Below are positions 8,934 to 42,637 of a stretch of DNA of 55,014 bases, in pieces. Each line of letters begins with the position of its first letter. Position 1 is the stretch's first letter. Both the position numbers and the translations under genes were made by a program. The notes below the pieces were generated by a model. It searched no databases, had not been told where the DNA came from, and saw only the letters and a list, made by a program, of their open reading frames with translations. Origin of the DNA: Solirubrobacterales bacterium (lineage in GTDB: Bacteria > Actinomycetota > Thermoleophilia > Solirubrobacterales > 70-9); contig JAGQUT010000011.1 of the NCBI GenBank assembly GCA_020438355.1, positions 1 to 55,014 of the forward strand, given 5' to 3'.

Positions 8934-9042
8934 GCCCCCAACCTTACCCTGCGCTTCGTACTGAATGAAAGACCGCCGCAACGTTGACAATTCACGGTTG
9001 TTCGGGGAGCATCGGGGAAAGTCGGGAGCAAGGGGGTTTGCT

Positions 9043-11811
9043 TTGGGGATTCGGAAGATCACTGGACAACTGGTCGTTGCGGCAGCTCTGCTGCTTGCCG
9101 GGACCTCCCCGGCGGAAGCGGCAACCATCACCGTGAACGACACTGGCGACTCCGTAGCCGATGCCGGCAGCTGCGTCCTCAGGGAAGCCATCGTCTCCGC
9201 CAACACCGACCTCGCGAGTGGTACAAACCCCGGCGAGTGTGCGGCGGGTGCCGGCGCGGACGTGATCGCCTTCAGTTTCGCGGGGTCCGGTCCCCACACG
9301 ATCACACCGGCGACCCAATACCCGGCGCTCACCGGTCCCACCATTGTCGACGGCAGCACGGAACCCGACGAGATCATTCTCGACGGGACCCTGACCACAT
9401 TTGACGTGGCGCTCTGGCTGGACGGAAACGACTCTTCGGTCGTCGGTCTGTCGCTTGTCCGTTGGGGCTACGGGGTCTACATCACCGGAGACCGAAACCG
9501 GGCGGCGAACAACCGGATCGGCACCAATCAGTCCGACGGGACAGGACTCGGGACCACGGTCGCCGGCGTCCTGGTCGAAGAGGGTCAGGACTCGGTGATC
9601 GAGGACAACGTGATCGCCGGCAGCGCCCAGCAGGGCATACGGGTCGCCGGAGGGCTGGTCCAGGACCTGAAGATCCAGGGCAACCTGATCGGGACCAACA
9701 GCACCGGCACGGCGGCTATTCCGAATGCCGAAGGAATCTCGATACGCGATGCGGACGGAACGCTTGTTGGAGGTTCGCCGGCCGAGTCCAACCTGATCTC
9801 CGGCAACGGTGGCCCAGGTGTCCAGGTCACCGGGAGCGCAACTGACAGCAACAACGGCAGCGTCATAAGCAACAACCGAATCGGAACCAACCTCGCCGGA
9901 ACCGCTGCCCTGCCGAACCTGCTTGGTGTGTCGATCCGGGGAGACTCGCGTTCGACCGCGATCGAGCAGAATCTGATCTCCGGCAATAGTGACACTGGCG
10001 TCCACTTCGAAGACACCGTGGGAGTGCCCAACACGCCGTCTGGTGCGACGGTCACGGGCAACCGGATCGGTCTGAATGCCGCCGGAACTGCGATCCTGGC
10101 GAATGGCCGGGGAGTGAACTTTGTTGACGTGGCCAACCCGATCGGTCCGGGCAACGTGGTCGGTGGCGTCACCGGCCTGACGGCGGGCTCCTGTACGGGG
10201 GACTGCAACGTGATTGCCGGTTCGACCATCAACCCGGGCGTGGTGGTCGGCAGCAACTCTGACCATGTGGCGATTCTCGGCAACCAGATCCGGGACAACT
10301 TCGGACTGGGTATCGACCTTGCCGCCCTGCCCTCCGGGGTCACACCCAACGATCCGGGTGACGGGGACACTGGACCGAACGGACTCCAGAACTATCCGGT
10401 GATCGACGCGGCGCTCGCGGTCGGCGGCAACCTGCTGCTGACCGGGTCGCTCGACTCGACCCCGGCCGAGGATTTCCGGATCGAAATCTTCGGCAGTCAG
10501 ACCCCTGACCCCTCCGGCCTCGGGGAAGGAGAGAGCTATCTCGGTGGTTTCGGGGTGGAGACACCGGCCGGGGACTCGACGGTCCCGTTCTCCCGGGTCC
10601 TGGCGACCCCGTTCACCGGCGGATCGACTCTCAGCGGAACCGCCACCCGCCTCGACCCGGTCGCCAACCGACCGGTCACCTCCGAGTTCGGGCCCCAGTC
10701 CGGCGAGGGTTGCGACCAGTCCGGCAGCGGTTCCGGGGAGGAACTGATCGCCGGCGACGACGGGGAAGTGCTCTGTGGCAGCGGTGGTGACGACAACCTG
10801 AAGAGCGGTGACGCGGGGGACATCCTCTCCGGCGGTACCGGGTCCGACACGGCTGATTTCAGCGACCTGACCGGCAGCGTCGGGGCCAGCCTCGCACTCG
10901 ATCAGGCCATCCACGGATCGATTGACATGCTGCTTTCGATCGAGAACCTGACCGGCAGCCCGCAGGCGGACGTCCTTGCCGGGTCTCCAGACAGCAACCT
11001 GCTGAGAGGAGGCGAGAGTGCCGACCAGATCAATCCCGGCGCCGGCGTCGACACGGTCTTTGGCGGTGGCGGGGGAGACTCGATCGTGGTTGACGATGGC
11101 GTCGCAGACGCCCTGGTCAATTGCGGCCCCGGCAGCGACACCGTGACTGCTGATCCGTCACTGGTCGAACCGGCGTCACTGTTCATTGACTGCGAGACGA
11201 TAGTCCGGCCCCTCGAACCGGAGCCGACCTGCGACACCGACCCCTCGCTCTGCCCGCCTACCTGCGAGACGGACCAGAGCCTTTGTCCGCCGGAGCCGGT
11301 CGTCTACAAGTGCGACGGGATCAAGGCCACCATCGTCGGCACAAACAACAGCGAGACGATCAACGGCACCAACGGCCGGGATGTGATCGTCGCTCGGGCG
11401 GGCAAGGACGAGATCAACCCGAAGAAAGGAAATGACCTGATCTGCGCCGGTGACGGCGTTGACACGGTGACCGGCAGTGGAGGCAATGACCGGGCCCTGG
11501 GGCAGGACGGTGCCGACATCCTCAAGGGGGGTGACGGCAACGACAAGCTGCTCGGCGGAGCAAAAGACGACAAGCTCTACGGCCACAACCACGGAGACAT
11601 CCTCAAGGGCGGGGAAGGATCTGACCGGCTGGAAGGGGGCGCAAACGCCGACACCCTGTACGGGGAGGGCCACGGCAAGGACAAGCTCTACGGCAACTCC
11701 GGCTTCGACAAGCTCAACGGTGGCGACGGCGGGAACGACTTTTGCGACGGCGGCACAGACAACGACCGACGGAAAGCCGCAGGCTGCGAGAAGCGCAAAC
11801 GGCTTCCCTGA
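9043..11811 (+). CDS. Secreted beta-helix protein with RTX-type repeats
   Basis: A 922-aa exported surface protein. The TTG at 9043 is preceded by AGGGGG and gives an immediate signal peptide (GIRKITGQLVVAAALLLAG, cut near ...SPAEAA); an in-frame ATG at 8965 lacks a ribosome-binding site. After the signal comes a CSLREA-like segment (ITVNDTGDSV...CVLREAI). Parallel beta-helix repeats follow (NNRIGTN, GNLIGTNSTGTAAIPNAEGISI, SNNRIGTNLAGTAALPNLLGVSI and similar). The second half carries RTX-like calcium-binding nonapeptides (GGDDNLKSGDAGD, GNDRALGQDGADILKGGDGNDKLLGG). The C-terminus is short and basic (EKRKRLP). RTX repeats usually fold in millimolar calcium outside the cell; beta-helix proteins often bind or cut polysaccharides, but no catalytic residues can be assigned. 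Confidence 0.85.
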   Translation: MGIRKITGQLVVAAALLLAGTSPAEAATITVNDTGDSVADAGSCVLREAIVSANTDLASGTNPGECAAGAGADVIAFSFAGSGPHTITPATQYPALTGPTIVDGSTEPDEIILDGTLTTFDVALWLDGNDSSVVGLSLVRWGYGVYITGDRNRAANNRIGTNQSDGTGLGTTVAGVLVEEGQDSVIEDNVIAGSAQQGIRVAGGLVQDLKIQGNLIGTNSTGTAAIPNAEGISIRDADGTLVGGSPAESNLISGNGGPGVQVTGSATDSNNGSVISNNRIGTNLAGTAALPNLLGVSIRGDSRSTAIEQNLISGNSDTGVHFEDTVGVPNTPSGATVTGNRIGLNAAGTAILANGRGVNFVDVANPIGPGNVVGGVTGLTAGSCTGDCNVIAGSTINPGVVVGSNSDHVAILGNQIRDNFGLGIDLAALPSGVTPNDPGDGDTGPNGLQNYPVIDAALAVGGNLLLTGSLDSTPAEDFRIEIFGSQTPDPSGLGEGESYLGGFGVETPAGDSTVPFSRVLATPFTGGSTLSGTATRLDPVANRPVTSEFGPQSGEGCDQSGSGSGEELIAGDDGEVLCGSGGDDNLKSGDAGDILSGGTGSDTADFSDLTGSVGASLALDQAIHGSIDMLLSIENLTGSPQADVLAGSPDSNLLRGGESADQINPGAGVDTVFGGGGGDSIVVDDGVADALVNCGPGSDTVTADPSLVEPASLFIDCETIVRPLEPEPTCDTDPSLCPPTCETDQSLCPPEPVVYKCDGIKATIVGTNNSETINGTNGRDVIVARAGKDEINPKKGNDLICAGDGVDTVTGSGGNDRALGQDGADILKGGDGNDKLLGGAKDDKLYGHNHGDILKGGEGSDRLEGGANADTLYGEGHGKDKLYGNSGFDKLNGGDGGNDFCDGGTDNDRRKAAGCEKRKRLP

Positions 11812-32979: not shown

Positions 32980-34836
32980 ATGAGTGGCACCGATTCAGAG
33001 ATCAGAATCTCCTCGCCGGTGCAGGCGCTGCTGGAACGTCTGCATGAACGGCATGCGGATGACATGTCGGGCGAGGTCGCGAGCTACATCCCGGAACTGG
33101 CGAGGGCTGATCCTGCCTGGTTTGGAATCTCGATGGTCACTGCTGACGGGTCGGTCTACGAGGTGGGGGACACCCGCCACGAGTTCACGATTCAATCGAT
33201 TTCAAAGCCTTTGACCTTCGCGCTCGCACTGGAGGCGATCGGCGAGGAGGAGGTCCGAAAGCACGTTGACGTCGAACCCAGCGGGGAAGCCTTCAACTCG
33301 ATCACCCTGCAGCCCGGCACCGGACGCCCACTCAACCCGATGGTCAACGCCGGGGCGATCGCAACCACATCCCTGATCGAACCTCTCGGGTTCGACCGGC
33401 CGATTGACCGCATCCTCAACGAGTACTCGGCATTTGCGGGGCGGGACCTGAGCATCGACGAGGAGGTTTTCTCCTCGGAGAACGAGACCGGTCACCGGAA
33501 TCGGGCTATCGCCTATCTGCTCCGGAACGCGGGGGTGGTGGATCACGAGGTCGAGGAAGTCGTGGAGACCTACTTCCGCCAGTGTTCGACCCTGGTCACC
33601 TGCCGGGACCTGGCGGTGATCGCAGCGACCCTCGCTTCGACGGGTTTCAACCCGGTCACCCGCGAGCGGGTTCTGAGGGAAGACACGGTCCGGAACGTCC
33701 TGAGTGTGATGGCCAGCTGCGGCATGTATGACTCGGCTGGCGACTGGCTTTACACCGTGGGGCTTCCTGCCAAGTCCGGTGTTGCCGGCGGGATCATCGC
33801 GGTGCTGCCGGGCCAGCTTGGCATCGCCGTCTATTCACCACCGCTTGACATCCACGGCAACAGTGTCAGGGGGATCAAGGTTTGCGAGGAACTCTCGGAC
33901 GAGCTTCACCTCCACGTGATGAGCCCGGCGCGCAGGCCCCCACCTCCGGTCAGGATTGAACGCAGCTGCGTGGATTCAAGGTCGAAGCGGATGCGTAGCC
34001 CAGCCGAGCAGGCAGTACTCGCAGAGCACGGTCGCCGCGTCAAGGTACTCGAACTTCAGGGCGAGCTCTCCTTCGCCGCTGGCGAGATAATCACCGGTTC
34101 CGCGCTTCATCGTGCCGATCACACGGACTTCACGGTTCTGGACTTCCGGGCGGTCAGATCCATTGACCTGATCGACGTGCCCATCTTTTCCCACCTGATC
34201 GAAAGCGTCGAAGGGGCCGACGGGAAGATCGCCTTCTCGGACGTCGACCGGCATCCGATCTTCTTCGACGAACTTTCCCGCCACCGCGAAAGGGAAGGCC
34301 TTGAACCGGTCAGGACTTTCCCCTACCTCGATCTGGCCCTCGAATGGTGTGAACAGGGTCTGATCGAGAAGTACGGCGAGATCGAATCAGAGCAGGAACT
34401 TGGCCTCGCCCAGCACGGTGCGACGATCGGCATGAGCCCCGACCAGATTGCCCTTCTGGCCGAACACCTCGACCACCGGGAGTACGAACCGGGAGAGGTG
34501 ATCTACGAAGACACCGAGAAGAAGGTTCACGAGATGCTGCTGGTCTCCGCGGGCAAGATCAGCATCATGCTTCGCACCGGAGAGGGTGAACTGCGGCGGA
34601 TATCCACCCTGTCGCCGGGTATGACCCTGGGTGAGGTTGCGATGCTGAACGAGGGTGACAGGGTCGGGATCTCGGTAGCCGACACCCGGGTGTCTGCCTG
34701 GGTGCTCGATTCTGGTGAGCTCGAGGTGTTGCGAGCTGCCGATCCCGCGCTTGTCGCGACTCTCTTCGAAAATCTCCTGAAGATGATCGCGATCCGGTTC
34801 GGCAATCTCCGGCACATCTTTGATTCGCCTCCCTGA
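32980..34836 (+). CDS. Glutaminase fused to STAS and cNMP-binding domains
   Basis: A 618-aa three-domain protein. Residues 1-310 are a serine-dependent glutaminase (Gln to Glu plus ammonia) of the beta-lactamase-like fold: SISK (S73, K76) is the catalytic Ser-x2-Lys pair, followed by NPMVNAGAI, and KSGVAGGI near residue 265. Residues about 345-445 form a STAS-like domain (FTVLDFRAVRSIDLIDVPIF). Residues about 485-605 are a cyclic-nucleotide-binding domain (YEPGEVIYEDTEKKVHEMLL, LGEVAMLNEGDR). Bacterial glutaminases are usually about 310 aa, so the C-terminal half is extra and may tie activity to a nucleotide or a binding partner. Whether the cNMP pocket is functional is open; the canonical Arg of the phosphate-binding cassette is R in EGDRVG. 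Confidence 0.92.
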   Translation: MSGTDSEIRISSPVQALLERLHERHADDMSGEVASYIPELARADPAWFGISMVTADGSVYEVGDTRHEFTIQSISKPLTFALALEAIGEEEVRKHVDVEPSGEAFNSITLQPGTGRPLNPMVNAGAIATTSLIEPLGFDRPIDRILNEYSAFAGRDLSIDEEVFSSENETGHRNRAIAYLLRNAGVVDHEVEEVVETYFRQCSTLVTCRDLAVIAATLASTGFNPVTRERVLREDTVRNVLSVMASCGMYDSAGDWLYTVGLPAKSGVAGGIIAVLPGQLGIAVYSPPLDIHGNSVRGIKVCEELSDELHLHVMSPARRPPPPVRIERSCVDSRSKRMRSPAEQAVLAEHGRRVKVLELQGELSFAAGEIITGSALHRADHTDFTVLDFRAVRSIDLIDVPIFSHLIESVEGADGKIAFSDVDRHPIFFDELSRHREREGLEPVRTFPYLDLALEWCEQGLIEKYGEIESEQELGLAQHGATIGMSPDQIALLAEHLDHREYEPGEVIYEDTEKKVHEMLLVSAGKISIMLRTGEGELRRISTLSPGMTLGEVAMLNEGDRVGISVADTRVSAWVLDSGELEVLRAADPALVATLFENLLKMIAIRFGNLRHIFDSPP

Positions 34837-37192: not shown

Positions 37193-40100
37193 CTACCTGA
37201 CGATCCGGAAGCTTCTGAATACGGGCTCGGACTTTCCTCCCGGGCCGGAGGCGCGGATAACCACCCGGTACTTGCCGGGGCGAAGGGCCTTCTTGCCGAT
37301 CCTGCCACTGAACGCCACGGTGTTCTTGCCGGCCGGGCGGTTCTTGCGGGTCAGCTTGCCCCTGAAGGCGAGTCTCTTGCAGGCTTTCCGGGTCTTGTTC
37401 TTCGCGGTCGGCTTCACGCACTTCTTTCCGACCTTTCGGCCCTTCAGTTTCTGATCAACCCTGATCGTGAGGTTCGCTCTCGTGTTCAGGGTGAAGCGGA
37501 GCTTGCTGCCCCGCTTGCCTTTGTTCGAGACCTTGAACTTGAACGGCTTGAGGCTGACCTTGGTCAGTTTCGGGACGAGTGCCCGCGGGTTTTGGCAAGT
37601 GCCCGAGTTCACGTAGATGTATGTCGACCGCATGGTTCCCATCACACCACTGACTGCGTTACTTCCCTCCGCCGAGAACATCAGACAGTTGCCATTGGCA
37701 CTCATCTGGGGGCCCCGGGCTCCACGCAGGAAGGCGCCTGGGGTTCCGAAGAGCGGCGGCCCTGACGTACTGCCGTCGGCGAGATTCTTGACAACGACCC
37801 CCTCGGTGTCACCGGCGATCGAGACGTCGGTTCGGATGTTGCTTGCCGCAGTTGAGAAAGAAACAAGGCTTCCGTCGTTGTTCAAGCTGGGGTCGGCAGA
37901 GTCTCCGTCACCGACCACACCGCCTGGAGAGGCGCTGGCGAGCGTATTCGTTCCGTCAGCGACTGTTCGTACGACGATCTGGCCCTGGAAGGCAGGCCAG
38001 GGGGCGGTCGCGGGAACCGTAGCCGAGTCGCTGGTAACGAAGGCGACCCTGGAACCGTCCGGGCTGATGGTGCTGTCGTAGATGAAGCTGGTGATCGAGG
38101 CCCCGGCCAGCCCAGGTGCCCTTGAAATAAGGATCGTCTGGTCGGTGTTGCGGTCGCGAAGGTAGATGCTGCGACTTGATGACGCGTCATCCGGAGAAAG
38201 GTTCGTCGCGCTGGAAGCGAAAGTGATCCTCGAACCGTCCGAACTTATCGCCGGGAGCTCCGCCGTGTTGTTCGCCGTTGCTCCGGCCTCACCATTTGCC
38301 CTCGAGATGATCTCGGTCTGGTTTGTGCCCAGGTCCCTGGTGAAGACCTTCGGGTTGCCATCGCCGTAGCCGAGATTCGTCGCTTCGGTCGAGAAGGCCA
38401 CGACAGAACCGTCGCCGTTGACGCTTGGTGCGGTACTGGAATCGTCACCGACCGCGCCGCCCGGGCCGTCGGCCCTTGAGACAAGGATGGTCTGGTTTGC
38501 GGATATGTCCCTTATGTAGACATCGCCAACACTGTTGGTGTCAGCGGGATCGAGCGAGTTGTAGGCGACGAACGCGACCCGGTTGCCGTCACCAGAGATG
38601 GAGGGTTCGCTAGCTGCTTCGGAGATTGCGCCCTTCGCCCCGGTTGCCCGGGAGACGAGAACGATCTTCCCGGTCGCCAGGTCCCGGCGGTATACCTGCT
38701 CGACCTGTGGAGCGCCGCCGGGCAGCCTGCTCGACCAGGTCGAGAAGACCATGTACCGACCGTTCGCGCTCAGGGTCCTCGAAATTCCCCCGTCGGAATA
38801 GTTGCTGAAGCCCGGGGAGACGACCTTCGCGCTTCCCTTCGGCCGGGATACGTAGCGGATCTTGTTGTCGTTGAGGTTTCGACGGAAGACTCCCTGCAGG
38901 TCATAGTCACTATCGGGCGTCCCTCCTCCAGACTCAGCCCAGGTGCCCCACGAACCGTTACCGGAGATGACTCCGAACACCGCGTATTCGTTGCGTGCGG
39001 AGACAAGTTTGGTGGAAGAGCTGGAACGGTCGCGCACGTATACGCCGTAGTAGTCAAGTCCGGCGCCGAGGTTCCCCGCGTCGGAGGAGAAAATGACCCG
39101 CTCGCCGTTGTTGCTGATGCTTGGAGTATGCGCTCGACTGTCTGCGTTTACTCCGTTGGCGCCGGTCGCTCGGCTGATCAGCTCGGATGCCTGGCTCGGC
39201 ATTGTCTTCAGGTAGACCGAAGAATCAGTCGCAGTGTCAGTAACTGCGTTGTCGACCAGATTGTTTCCGCGGCTGGCAAATGCCACCTTGACCGCTGCCA
39301 GGGCGCCGGGCGTACCGGCGATGACTGGCTCTTCCGACTCACCATTGGCTCCCTGGGTCGAGGAATCGAACCGCGAGCTCACCAGATAAGTCACGCCATC
39401 GACCATGTCCCTGAGGTAGATGTCGGAACCGAAGGCTCCGTTGTTGTCGGTAAAGCCTGCGATCAGGTTGGTGGAATCGGAACTGAACGCAACCCAGCGG
39501 CCGTCGCCGCTGATCGCTGACTCGTACGAGCTGTCATTTCCGGCATTGGGGAGGGCCGGGGTACGGGACACGATGTCGATGGTCCCGTCAGAGAGGCGTC
39601 GCCTGTAGACGTCTGAAAGCCCGTTTACGTCTCCCGGTACCAATGCGCTTTCGGTCGGGAACACGATGTACTTGCCATCGCCGGAAATCTTCGCGTCACC
39701 TACAGATCCCGAGGTGCCGGGTGTGATCAGAGTCGTAGTCCCGGCGGCGATGTCTCGAAGGAAAGCGTCTGGCGTGTTGTCGGCGTCATCCGCGGTCAGT
39801 TGGTCCTCGGTCACCATGACCGCCAGGTTCCCGTTGGCGCTCAGATCGAACGAGTAGAAGAAAGCCCCCGAAGCGGCACCGTTCTTGCCGTCCCGGCGGC
39901 TGACCAGGATGCTCTTGCCCGTCTGCATGTCCCGGCGATAGATGTTCAGACTGTCGACCGCTCCGTCCGGGTCAAGCAGGTTCGATATGGCCGTGAAGAG
40001 CACAAAGCGTCCGTTGTCGCTCATCGGATTGGAAGAGTTGCCCATCCCCAGGGTGCCCGCCTGTGTTCCCGGGATCTCACCCGCCTTGAGAGGAAGCCAG

Positions 40101-40225
40101 CTCACCGGAAATGTCTGGCCTGTGCCTGCGGTCACGGCCGAGGCCGGTCCGGGAAGCAAAGCCATTCCTGCCATCACAAGCAGCCCGATCAGAATCGTAC
40201 GCATCCCTCTTGAGTTCTCCCCCAT
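37193..40225 (-). CDS. Secreted PD40/TolB-like multi-repeat propeller protein
   Basis: A 1,010-aa exported protein. I place the start at the ATG at 40225 (GGGGGAG upstream), which gives a signal peptide (MRTILIGLLVMAGMALLPGPASA); the open frame reaches 40390 but contains no better site. About twelve units of roughly 60-80 residues repeat the pattern SxDGRxVxFxSxAxNL...VYxRDxxTGxTxLVSR, the PD40/WD40-like beta-propeller repeat, enough for two six-bladed propellers. The last 130 residues are very basic beta-rich (about 880-1010: KLRFTLNTRANLTIRV, RKACKRLAFRGKLTRKN), like the C-terminal domains of other secreted proteins here. It is divergent from the glycine-tetrad cassette. No enzyme motif is seen. 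Confidence 0.85.
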   Translation of the reverse strand: MGENSRGMRTILIGLLVMAGMALLPGPASAVTAGTGQTFPVSWLPLKAGEIPGTQAGTLGMGNSSNPMSDNGRFVLFTAISNLLDPDGAVDSLNIYRRDMQTGKSILVSRRDGKNGAASGAFFYSFDLSANGNLAVMVTEDQLTADDADNTPDAFLRDIAAGTTTLITPGTSGSVGDAKISGDGKYIVFPTESALVPGDVNGLSDVYRRRLSDGTIDIVSRTPALPNAGNDSSYESAISGDGRWVAFSSDSTNLIAGFTDNNGAFGSDIYLRDMVDGVTYLVSSRFDSSTQGANGESEEPVIAGTPGALAAVKVAFASRGNNLVDNAVTDTATDSSVYLKTMPSQASELISRATGANGVNADSRAHTPSISNNGERVIFSSDAGNLGAGLDYYGVYVRDRSSSSTKLVSARNEYAVFGVISGNGSWGTWAESGGGTPDSDYDLQGVFRRNLNDNKIRYVSRPKGSAKVVSPGFSNYSDGGISRTLSANGRYMVFSTWSSRLPGGAPQVEQVYRRDLATGKIVLVSRATGAKGAISEAASEPSISGDGNRVAFVAYNSLDPADTNSVGDVYIRDISANQTILVSRADGPGGAVGDDSSTAPSVNGDGSVVAFSTEATNLGYGDGNPKVFTRDLGTNQTEIISRANGEAGATANNTAELPAISSDGSRITFASSATNLSPDDASSSRSIYLRDRNTDQTILISRAPGLAGASITSFIYDSTISPDGSRVAFVTSDSATVPATAPWPAFQGQIVVRTVADGTNTLASASPGGVVGDGDSADPSLNNDGSLVSFSTAASNIRTDVSIAGDTEGVVVKNLADGSTSGPPLFGTPGAFLRGARGPQMSANGNCLMFSAEGSNAVSGVMGTMRSTYIYVNSGTCQNPRALVPKLTKVSLKPFKFKVSNKGKRGSKLRFTLNTRANLTIRVDQKLKGRKVGKKCVKPTAKNKTRKACKRLAFRGKLTRKNRPAGKNTVAFSGRIGKKALRPGKYRVVIRASGPGGKSEPVFRSFRIVR

Positions 40226-40427
40226 CTGACCGCCGCTCCCCCGGTTGATTTCAGTTCCGATTAACGCCTGCTCAGGAACCTTACCCCTGATCGCGGTGTC
40301 GTTTCCAGTTCTTGCCCGGGGATCCGGGGGCTTCCTTTCCTGCGGTATTCGCGTCACCTGCTCCTTTTCGGTTTCGATCTGTGCTCGCATGCGTAAACAT
40401 GGGGGGTCCAGGAAAGGTCACTAGCCG

Positions 40428-41234
40428 ATGCGTTTCCCCAGGAAGTCGAAAAAGCAGTCGGGACAGGAGAGTCCCTCGGAAGACACCCAGGAGATGTTCA
40501 CCACCGGGGGCGGTGAGCCCGCGGAGCAGCCGACCGACCAGGAAGAAACGGCTGACCTTCAGGAAGTAACGGATATAGAGGAGACCAGGGAGTACGCCGC
40601 TGTCGCCGAAGCGTCCCGGAGCGCAGAAGCCAGCGGGGAGGATTCCCCTCCCGAGGATGACCCCGAAGTGATCGCTGCGATCGAGGACGAGCAGTGGGTC
40701 GAAGACGATTACGAGGAGTGGGAAGACGACGGGATCGTTGACGAGTTCGACGACGAGACACCCGAAGCCGAGGAAGAGACGACTGACGCCGACGCTGAAG
40801 CGGCACCTTCCAGGGGAGAGGATCTCAAGGTCTGGTTTGCCGAGTTCCGGACTCGAACCCGCGCTGTCGGTTCAGGATTTCTGGCCCGGATCGGAGCGAT
40901 CAAGCTTCCCAACCAGGAGATAAACGGACAGAAGGTACTGGCCGTCGCCGGGATAGTTGCCATCTCCCTGCTCGTCGGTGGTGCCGGATACGTACTCGGC
41001 AAAGGTTCGGGCGAAGATCTGGACAAGGCGCGGCTCGAAGGGGAGTTTGCGGGCAGGCAGGCCGGGGCGGTTGCCGGCGCGACAAAGGGCTATGCGGCGG
41101 GATTCAAGAAGGGCCGGGACGTGGCGTTCCAGAAATCGTATGCAGCCTCCTACCGCCGCAACTACATAAGGGCATACGAGGAAGCCGGGATGGAAGCGCC
41201 GAAGCCGGAAGACATCGAAGTTCCGGAGCCTTGA
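40428..41234 (+). CDS. Membrane protein with glycine-tetrad helix, first of three
   Basis: A 268-aa protein. Residues 1-160 are strongly acidic and low-complexity (Glu/Asp-rich, presumably cytosolic), one membrane helix follows at about 170-190 (VLAVAGIVAISLLVGGAGYVLG), and the rest is a polar helix outside. In that outer part glycine recurs at exactly every fourth residue seven times (G205, 209, 213, 217, 221, 225, 229; EGEFAGRQAGAVAGATKG...). A Tyr/Arg-rich stretch and a Pro/Glu tail follow. The two next genes encode proteins with the same membrane-helix-plus-tetrad plan, and each overlaps its upstream neighbour. I do not recognise a family. The promoter region (40226-40427) is shared with the divergent PD40 gene. 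Confidence 0.75.
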   Translation: MRFPRKSKKQSGQESPSEDTQEMFTTGGGEPAEQPTDQEETADLQEVTDIEETREYAAVAEASRSAEASGEDSPPEDDPEVIAAIEDEQWVEDDYEEWEDDGIVDEFDDETPEAEEETTDADAEAAPSRGEDLKVWFAEFRTRTRAVGSGFLARIGAIKLPNQEINGQKVLAVAGIVAISLLVGGAGYVLGKGSGEDLDKARLEGEFAGRQAGAVAGATKGYAAGFKKGRDVAFQKSYAASYRRNYIRAYEEAGMEAPKPEDIEVPEP

Positions 41235-41740
41235 ATCCGAAGCGACAGACGCATTGGTTGATCGGCAGCGTGCTGGCGCTCTTGCTTGCCGGCCTGATCG
41301 GCTGGACAATCGGAGCGAACGGAGCGACCGGCGAGAGCGAAGCTGAAACCGCCCGCGACGAAGGCTTTCGCCTGGGTTACGAAGCCGCTTTCGTGGAAAC
41401 GCGCGAGATGACCGTCAGCAAGGGTCTCAAGGTCGGAGCCAGCAGGGGCAAGCTCGCCGGGGCCAAGACCGGATCGCGGGAAGGCCTGGTGATCGGCGCC
41501 GGGAACGCCCAGATCGAAGAAGCGGTCGCTTCACAGAAGGCCGCCGACTCGGCCGATTCCGCCGCCGAGTCCGAGATAGCGGCCAGGGAGGCGAATTGTG
41601 GAGTGCTGGCCTCCGCCCCTGGCTGGTGCCCGACCAGCGATGAACTGGCCGCCTACAAGGAGGCAGTCAAGGCGGCGCGAGAAGCAGCTGCCGAGGCGGA
41701 GAAGGAGAAGGAGAAGGGAGCCGGCGGTGACCGACCCTGA
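41231..41740 (+). CDS. Membrane protein with glycine-tetrad helix, second of three
   Basis: A 169-aa protein starting at a TTG that overlaps the previous stop by four bases (TTGA). One N-terminal membrane helix (about 10-29, LIGSVLALLLAGLIGWTIGA) is followed by a polar outer region. Glycine again recurs at every fourth position seven times: G65, 69, 73, 77, 81, 85, 89 (SKGLKVGASRGKLAGAKTG...). Then comes an Ala/Glu helical stretch with two cysteines 10 residues apart (C123, C133, possible disulfide) and an Ala/Glu/Lys-rich coiled-coil-like tail. No known family recognised. Confidence 0.75.
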   Translation: MNPKRQTHWLIGSVLALLLAGLIGWTIGANGATGESEAETARDEGFRLGYEAAFVETREMTVSKGLKVGASRGKLAGAKTGSREGLVIGAGNAQIEEAVASQKAADSADSAAESEIAAREANCGVLASAPGWCPTSDELAAYKEAVKAAREAAAEAEKEKEKGAGGDRP

Positions 41741-42155
41741 GAAAGAGCAGGCTCCCAAAGCGAAGAACCCGAGACCGTGGGTCAGGCCAGTGGTCTTCGC
41801 GGCGGCCGTCCTCGTGCTGGCCGGAGCGTTGGGCTTTGGTGCCGGCTACCTGACCCGGGGAGGTGACGAAGGTCAGGATCTCTCCGAGCGGCAGGCGTTC
41901 GAGCAGGCCCGGGAACGGACTCGGGCGGAGGTGAGCCGCGCGATGGCGAGGCAGGGATTCATCGACGGGAAACGGTCGGGACGCAGCCACGGGATCATCG
42001 CCGGCGGGATGGCCGCCGAGTCAGCGGTGACGATCGTGGTCAGGGATCAGGCGGCGTCGGAAGCCCAGTCGGCTGCTGCCTCGGCCCAGGCAGAACTTGC
42101 AGGGATGACATCAGCACCCCCGCCCCCGACCCCCGAAGTCGAGGACGGGGGCTAG
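41727..42155 (+). CDS. Membrane protein with glycine-tetrad helix, third of three
   Basis: A 142-aa protein starting at GTG 41727 (GGGAG six bases upstream), overlapping the preceding gene by 14 bases. A short basic cytosolic N-terminus is followed by one membrane helix (about 21-43, PVVFAAAVLVLAGALGFGAGYL), then a charged outer helix. Five glycines lie at a strict spacing of four (G77, 81, 85, 89, 93; QGFIDGKRSGRSHGIIAGG). The C-terminus is Ala/Gln-rich and ends in Pro repeats. The shared plan and overlaps suggest that the three gene products assemble together; that is inference. Confidence 0.74.
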   Translation: MTDPEKEQAPKAKNPRPWVRPVVFAAAVLVLAGALGFGAGYLTRGGDEGQDLSERQAFEQARERTRAEVSRAMARQGFIDGKRSGRSHGIIAGGMAAESAVTIVVRDQAASEAQSAAASAQAELAGMTSAPPPPTPEVEDGG

Positions 42156-42166
42156 GGCGCCGTTGC

Positions 42167-42637
42167 CTAGATCTCTGACGCCCAGACGCACTCGGGCTGC
42201 TCGATCTTGATCTTCATCCGCCCGCGACGGTTGTAGGTGCTGGTGGTGAACCAGTCGCAGAGCATCGTGTCGACGTAGTAGCCGAGATCGTCGTAGTAGT
42301 CCTCGGATGCCCACGTGTAGCAGTAGACGGTTGATCGGTTCAGCCTTCGGCAGGACCCTGTCCCGTACCGGTCGAAGTTGAATTCCGGGTCAAGATAGAT
42401 CTGGTACGCGGTGTATCTGGCGTTGTTCTTCGCCTTGTACATCGGCATGAATTTCGGACGCTTGCGGCGGCTGCTTGTTGCGCCGGAGTCGACTACGCCG
42501 AGATCACGGCCGTCAAGCGCGGACTCGACTATCCGGGTGGTTTCGGTGGGTTGGGCGGCCGACGAGCTCCCGGTAGACCAGAGGCCTAGAGAGGTCAGGA
42601 GTGCGGCGGCGATGAGGATGTTTCTGAACGAGATCAC
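42167..42637 (-). CDS. Small secreted Tyr/Cys-rich protein
   Basis: A 156-aa exported protein with a signal peptide (residues 1-27, ILIAAALLTSLGLWS, cut near SSSAAQ). The mature part is Tyr-rich with four cysteines (in GTGSCRRLN, VYCYTW, MLCDWF and PECVWAS), presumably two disulfides. A basic stretch (RRKRPKF) lies near residue 60. No family is recognised. It overlaps the upstream TPR gene by four bases (ATGA), so the two are translated together. Confidence 0.72.
   Translation of the reverse strand: MISFRNILIAAALLTSLGLWSTGSSSAAQPTETTRIVESALDGRDLGVVDSGATSSRRKRPKFMPMYKAKNNARYTAYQIYLDPEFNFDRYGTGSCRRLNRSTVYCYTWASEDYYDDLGYYVDTMLCDWFTTSTYNRRGRMKIKIEQPECVWASEI

What the first reader, a model, noticed from the sequence alone, without database searches (positions are those of the whole stretch)
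40428..42155. Three-gene cassette of membrane proteins with strict glycine-every-four repeats
Three consecutive overlapping genes (4- and 14-base overlaps) each encode one membrane helix followed by an outer helix in which glycine occurs at exactly every fourth position: seven times in the first (205-229), seven in the second (65-89) and five in the third (77-93). The glycine face is embedded in charged residues, so these are not membrane helices themselves. A four-residue glycine period on an alpha helix gives a smooth ridge for very close helix packing. All three products are anchored by a TM helix, and the first has a long acidic cytosolic part. I know of glycine zippers of GxxxGxxxG, but not of a three-gene, envelope-facing set like this. 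It may be a hetero-oligomeric envelope scaffold or sensor.
Basis: partly seen in the sequence, partly recalled or inferred. Interest (0 to 1): 0.85.

Follow-up and report, generated by a model that had tools for sequence, protein, structure and literature searches.

The report
Glycine-ridge membrane protein gene set
In a little-studied group of soil and water bacteria, sets of two or three overlapping genes make partner membrane proteins whose outer helices carry a glycine at every fourth position, and distant cousins carry the same helix as the outer part of signalling kinases, which points to an undescribed way of assembling cell-envelope receptors.

Summary
Genes A (40428-41234), B (41231-41740) and C (41727-42155) each have one TM helix followed by glycine at every fourth residue (7, 7 and 5 times). 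The tetrad glycines are 79-100% conserved (most invariant), the residues between them only 42-58%. Linkage is conserved: 24 of 25 tandem A-B loci examined in related genomes share the same NTGA four-base overlap, down to about 30% identity. B and C are paralogues. The family occurs as triplets, pairs (tandem or head-to-head), B fused to an SGNH hydrolase-like domain, solitary proteins with 12-17 glycines, and the ectodomain of Pkn-type receptor Ser/Thr kinases. The kinases fix the topology: tetrad outside, N-terminus inside. A's acidic cytosolic tail carries two conserved Thr motifs (EDTQEMF, EETREY) that fit an actinobacterial kinase-site consensus. Most likely the products form a hetero-oligomeric single-pass envelope receptor or scaffold zipped by glycine-faced helices; such pairing is experimentally known for Yae1-Lto1. 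No family library names the window proteins. Complex formation, ligand and phosphorylation are inferred. I rate it a new variant of a known kind (GxxxG-repeat assembly), essentially restricted to Thermoleophilia, of moderately high interest.

The parts
40428..41234 (+). gene A: acidic cytosolic tail, one TM, seven-glycine tetrad helix, Tyr-repeat C-terminus (268 aa)
   Evidence: ORF; conserved in genus and family
40479..40496 (+). conserved EDTQEM motif in the cytosolic tail of A (Thr20); matches an actinobacterial Ser/Thr kinase site consensus
   Evidence: alignment of tails, 9 of 10; unique in the genome; consensus from PMC7164672; phosphorylation not tested
40578..40595 (+). second conserved tail motif EETREY (Thr53)
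   Evidence: alignment of tails, 7 of 10
40929..40997 (+). TM helix of A (approximate)
   Evidence: hydropathy maximum 2.14; conserved glycines at its end
41040..41114 (+). glycine tetrad of A, residues 205-229, 7 glycines
41231..41740 (+). gene B, TTG start inside the TTGA overlap with the stop of A (169 aa)
   Evidence: 4-base NTGA overlap kept in 24 of 25 tandem loci
41255..41314 (+). TM helix of B (approximate)
   Evidence: AlphaFold2 helix 3-31
41423..41497 (+). glycine tetrad of B, residues 65-89, 7 glycines, inside a predicted helix 35-121
41597..41629 (+). Cys pair of B (Cys123, Cys133; NCGxxxxAPxWCPT), likely extracytoplasmic disulphide
   Evidence: conserved in the eleven genus B proteins of alignment A2; other C-terminal Cys pairs in L012, L016, L017, L020
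41727..42155 (+). gene C, GTG start, 14-base overlap with B (142 aa); paralogue of B
   Evidence: hhalign B-C E 1.3e-15 over 113 columns
41790..41852 (+). TM helix of C (approximate)
   Evidence: hydropathy 2.26, conserved G36/G40
41955..42005 (+). glycine tetrad of C, residues 77-93, 5 glycines
   Evidence: invariant in 10 of 10 homologues

Best explanation
A, B and C are subunits of one single-pass membrane complex of the cell envelope. Shown: linkage with near-universal translational coupling, co-inheritance as matched sets, homology to one another, and conservation of the tetrad glycines above their surroundings. Well supported by inference: the tetrads lie outside the membrane. Inferred: the glycine faces of neighbouring subunits pack against one another, giving a long, tightly packed, probably parallel helix bundle above the membrane that joins A to B (and C). 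The unpaired relatives with 12-17 glycines would make homodimers the same way. Inferred and less certain: the bundle reports or holds something in the wall, and the state or clustering of the complex is passed to the cytosol through A, whose acidic tail offers phospho-Thr docking sites (EDTQEMF, EETREY) to Pkn kinases and FHA proteins. In the kinase relatives the same ectodomain is attached directly to the kinase.
For: Tetrad columns 0.92, 0.99 and 1.00 conserved against 0.53, 0.42 and 0.58 between them. Tandem A-B with identical NTGA overlap in 24 of 25 loci; L066 and L068 keep the pair head-to-head. In three genomes with two A-B loci, nearest neighbours of A and of B always agree; mirror-tree r = 0.94, 0 of 5000 shuffles. 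A-B and B-C profile similarity E 1e-10 and 1e-15. Kinase-TM-tetrad proteins: Pkinase E 1e-40 to 1e-42, tetrad runs 12-17; the profile of kinase and solitary ectodomains matches A with E 6e-12 across TM and tetrad. Cys pair in B and SGNH-like fusion to B beside acyltransferase-3/SGNH genes fit an outside location. B's tetrad lies in one 87-residue helix. Tail motifs are conserved in an otherwise divergent acidic tail and fit the acidic(-1), hydrophobic(+3) preference of PknA-dependent Thr sites in PMC7164672. Glycines of the deca-GX3 motif are needed for the Yae1-Lto1 complex (PMC4523923). The own genome has 4 kinase and 4 FHA hits.
Against: No complex was modelled or measured. The own genome's four kinases have no glycine tetrads and lie elsewhere. 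No kinase or FHA gene lies next to A-B-C. The tail motifs are missing in L009 and in the two-gene A proteins. Neighbouring genes are not conserved beyond close relatives. Several genomes of the same genus lack the set, so it is accessory; incomplete MAGs may exaggerate this.
Confidence: 0.55

Rival explanations
1. Purely structural anchor: the glycine-faced helices form a stiff, slim stalk that passes through the peptidoglycan or fixes a spacing in the wall, without signalling. The solitary forms and B-SGNH fusions simply display C-terminal domains.
For: Displayed C-terminal domains are common (Cys-pair beta domain, SGNH-like domain); neighbours include secreted proteins; no kinase adjacent to A-B-C.
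Against: The same ectodomain is joined to Pkn-type kinases, and A keeps conserved cytosolic Thr motifs, which a passive stalk does not need.
Confidence: 0.25
2. Each protein forms homodimers through its own glycine face; tandem genes reflect duplication, not a heterocomplex.
For: A, B and C are paralogues; solitary relatives with 12-17 glycines must homo-oligomerise if they oligomerise at all.
Against: NTGA coupling is kept in 24 of 25 loci and locus-matched co-inheritance is strict; head-to-head pairs show linkage is kept even when the operon is not; Yae1-Lto1 sets a precedent for hetero-pairing (PMC4523923).
Confidence: 0.15
3. A glycine-zipper pore-forming or contact-killing protein pair, comparable in principle to the Caulobacter cell-surface glycine-zipper proteins (PMC5380434).
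For: Paired glycine-repeat proteins.
Against: Here the repeats are polar, follow a fixed TM anchor, and A has a 160-residue cytosolic tail; kinase relatives have the same segment. The comparison with Caulobacter rests on the paper's abstract and on memory, not on a sequence search.
Confidence: 0.03
4. Compositional accident in Gly/Ala-rich, high-GC coding sequence.
For: C alone reaches its run in 113 of 100,000 shuffles.
Against: Glycines of all three are conserved across divergent homologues; runs of 6 or more occur only in this family among 223 genes.
Confidence: 0.01

Closest known systems
Yae1-Lto1 deca-GX3 adaptor pair (Pfam PF09811 Yae1_N)
   Same: Two proteins, each with a run of about ten glycines at every fourth residue; the glycines are needed for the heterocomplex (PMC4523923)
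   Different: Cytosolic eukaryotic Fe-S adaptors, no TM; A and B score 15.3-15.4 bits against a 27.5 cut-off
FliH / YscL GxxxG repeats
   Same: Long AxxxG(xxxG)mxxxA runs in a polar helix of a dimeric bacterial protein (PMC2674601); weak NCBIfam FliH hits to A and B over the repeat
   Different: Soluble, bind FliI-type ATPases; no TM, no tandem partner; scores 13-15 bits against cut-offs of 180 or more
PknB-type receptor Ser/Thr kinases of Actinobacteria
   Same: Single TM, cytosolic N-terminus, outer sensor; Thermoleophilia kinases carry this very ectodomain (L075, L076, L077, L095, L111)
   Different: Known ectodomains are PASTA repeats, beta-propeller or disulphide-containing folds (PMC3601408 and own knowledge); A, B and C lack a kinase domain
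Transmembrane glycine zippers (GxxxG TM dimers)
   Same: Glycine every fourth residue for close helix packing
   Different: Here the repeat is outside the membrane in a polar helix that follows the TM helix

Membership tests
Yae1_N / deca-GX3 (PF09811) | Pfam gathering score 27.5 reached | tested here: not met
   A 15.3, B 15.4 bits, C no hit; only kinase relative L095 reaches 28.8
Yae1_N / deca-GX3 (PF09811) | run of glycines at every fourth residue in a polar helix | tested here: met
   7, 7 and 5 glycines; helix in AlphaFold2 model of B
Yae1_N / deca-GX3 (PF09811) | heterocomplex through the repeat | not testable with these tools
   no multimer prediction available; co-inheritance only
FliH/YscL | curated NCBIfam score | tested here: not met
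   13.3-15 bits against 180-293
Pkn receptor kinase | kinase domain | tested here: not met
   no Pkinase hit in A, B or C; present in relatives
Pkn receptor kinase | single TM with outer sensor region of this type | tested here: met
   profile match of A to kinase/solitary ectodomain profile E 6e-12
Ser/Thr kinase substrate with FHA docking | conserved Thr with acidic -1 and hydrophobic +3 | tested here: met
   9 of 10 tails for motif 1, consensus PMC7164672
Ser/Thr kinase substrate with FHA docking | phosphorylation and FHA binding | not testable with these tools
   needs biochemistry

The most novel reading that the evidence does not exclude
Thermoleophilia have a class of transmembrane receptors whose outer domain is a glycine-faced helix bundle; it exists as homodimeric receptor kinases and as obligate A-B(-C) heterocomplexes that signal through phospho-Thr motifs in the tail of A instead of an attached kinase.
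Probability: 0.3. Interest if true: 0.78.

Novelty: new variant of a known kind. Interest (0 to 1): 0.6.

Why it matters
Long glycine-every-four helices in polar sequence were called very rare (PMC2674601), and their structural logic is still poorly known. Here a whole bacterial lineage uses them as envelope ectodomains, in matched gene sets and in receptor kinases, with up to 17 consecutive glycines. That gives many natural variants for asking how glycine-ridge helices choose partners and whether they transmit a signal across a membrane, and it marks a receptor-kinase ectodomain type that I found in no family library searched.

Tried and rejected
Chance or DNA-repeat origin: rejected. Known family: no Pfam or NCBIfam family reached its cut-off for A, B or C; no meaningful PDB sequence match (the OCM3 hit to L078 is a PSG-repeat artefact). 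Fold of the Cys-pair beta domain of solitary relatives: no PDB match with E below 3, on a model of only moderate confidence. Conserved neighbours as functional clue: neighbours of window, L021, L023 and L025 are shared (divergent PD40 secreted propeller, GNAT, cupin) but lost in L022 and other relatives, so not used. Kinase or FHA gene next to the set: none among the window genes scanned; own kinases are on other contigs and lack tetrads. EDTQEM as a general docking motif: it occurs once in the genome, so no other carrier was found. The genome-contig scan gave only two named relatives, both with the same A-type gene.

Full report
What was checked. Each has one strong hydrophobic helix and then glycine at exactly every fourth residue: A 205-229 (7), B 65-89 (7), C 77-93 (5). 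Shuffles of the same composition reach these runs in 0, 1 and 113 of 100,000. No tandem DNA repeat underlies them. Among 223 genes called in the window and related loci, every gene with a run of 6 or more belongs to this family.

Conservation. Homologues of A were found in 15 of 50 genomes of the family (the window's own included), mostly in the genus. Alignments A1 (19 A), A2 (18 B) and A3 (10 C) show that the tetrad glycines are the most conserved columns: mean 0.92, 0.99 and 1.00, against 0.53, 0.42 and 0.58 for the residues between them. B and C are paralogues over 113 columns (E 1.3e-15), and A shares TM plus tetrad with B (E 1.3e-10).

Linkage. In 24 of 25 tandem loci, down to about 30% identity, the stop of A and the start of B overlap as NTGA (ATGA, GTGA or TTGA), which explains the unusual TTG start of B here. 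In two other loci the pair is head-to-head (L066, L068). Three genomes carry two A-B loci each; the nearest relatives of A and of B always come from the same locus, and the identity matrices correlate at 0.94 (0 of 5000 shuffles). This is what one expects of obligate partners, although vertical inheritance of a linked pair contributes. C was found only with A-B in the window's genus. The set is absent from several genomes of the genus, so it is accessory.

Relatives and topology. Searches at order and class level showed that the family extends through the class (one search names Solirubrobacterales, class Thermoleophilia). In 396 genomes sampled from the whole phylum only one weak hit fell outside the class, over the repeat part of the profile. 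Solitary relatives have one TM, 12-17 consecutive tetrad glycines and a small C-terminal domain, usually with a Cys pair. In L075, L076, L077 and L095 the same TM-tetrad-C-terminal region follows a Pkn-type kinase domain (Pkinase E 1e-40 to 1e-42); L111 looks the same by sequence. Kinase domains are cytosolic, so the tetrad is extracytoplasmic (inference from kinase topology). Two further signs agree: B carries a conserved Cys pair, and in a neighbouring genus B is fused to an SGNH hydrolase-like domain (Lipase_GDSL_2, E 4e-5 in L015, below its cut-off) beside acyltransferase-3/SGNH proteins. The profile of solitary and kinase forms matches A across TM and tetrad with E 6e-12.

Structure. AlphaFold2 gives B a TM helix (3-31), one uninterrupted helix 35-121 that contains the tetrad, a loop with the Cys pair, and a last helix (mean pLDDT 77). 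The solitary relative L074 gives a TM helix, a 71-residue helix and a four-stranded domain with no PDB match (moderate confidence). Complexes could not be modelled.

The cytosolic tail of A. In an otherwise drifting acidic tail, [ED]DT[QR]E[MF] is kept in 9 of 10 tails and [DE]ET[RK]EY in 7. They match the Thr-site preference reported for PknA-dependent sites in M. tuberculosis: acidic at -1, hydrophobic at +3 (PMC7164672). The genome has four such kinases and four FHA hits. That these are phosphorylation and FHA-docking sites is inference.

Mechanism. I take A, B and C to be one hetero-oligomer whose glycine faces zip into a long outer helix bundle. The best experimental precedent is Yae1-Lto1, in which deca-GX3 glycines are needed for the heterocomplex (PMC4523923). 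FliH is the classic bacterial case of long GxxxG repeats, described as very rare (PMC2674601). A would carry the signal or docking function inside the cell. Confidence is moderate for the hetero-zipper and lower for signalling.

What it is not. A and B score well below the Yae1_N cut-off and far below FliH models; none of A, B, C has a kinase domain. It works like a deca-GX3 pair but is not filed as a member.

Noticed in passing
L075:3665-5371, L076:2899-4410, L077:3974-5482, L095:433-2031, L111:1486-3057: Receptor Ser/Thr kinases whose outer part is a run of up to 17 glycines at every fourth residue plus a small C-terminal domain; juxtamembrane DRPTQAFGD-like motif is shared by L077, L110 and L111.
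   Followed up: partly
L074, L080-L084, L103, L108, L109: Solitary single-TM proteins with long glycine tetrads and a small Cys-pair domain; the modelled one (L074) has no PDB match.
   Followed up: partly
L027:4724-10901, L013, L014: B proteins fused to an SGNH hydrolase-like domain; in L027 next to two acyltransferase-3/SGNH genes, suggesting a link to envelope acylation.
   Followed up: partly
window 8965-11811: 948-residue protein with a run of five glycines at every fourth residue, the only called gene in the window outside A-B-C with such a run.
   Followed up: no
window 32980-34836: Glutaminase fused to a cyclic-nucleotide-binding domain.
   Followed up: no
window 37193-40390: Large secreted PD40 propeller protein divergent from A; conserved in that place in L021, L023 and L025 only. 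Its signal peptide suggests a start well downstream of the listed ATG.
   Followed up: partly
window 42167-42637: Small predicted secreted protein (156 aa), convergent with C, without any family match.
   Followed up: no
L095 residues 416-452: The kinase ectodomain formally passes the Pfam Yae1_N cut-off (28.8 against 27.5), probably by convergence of the repeat.
   Followed up: no
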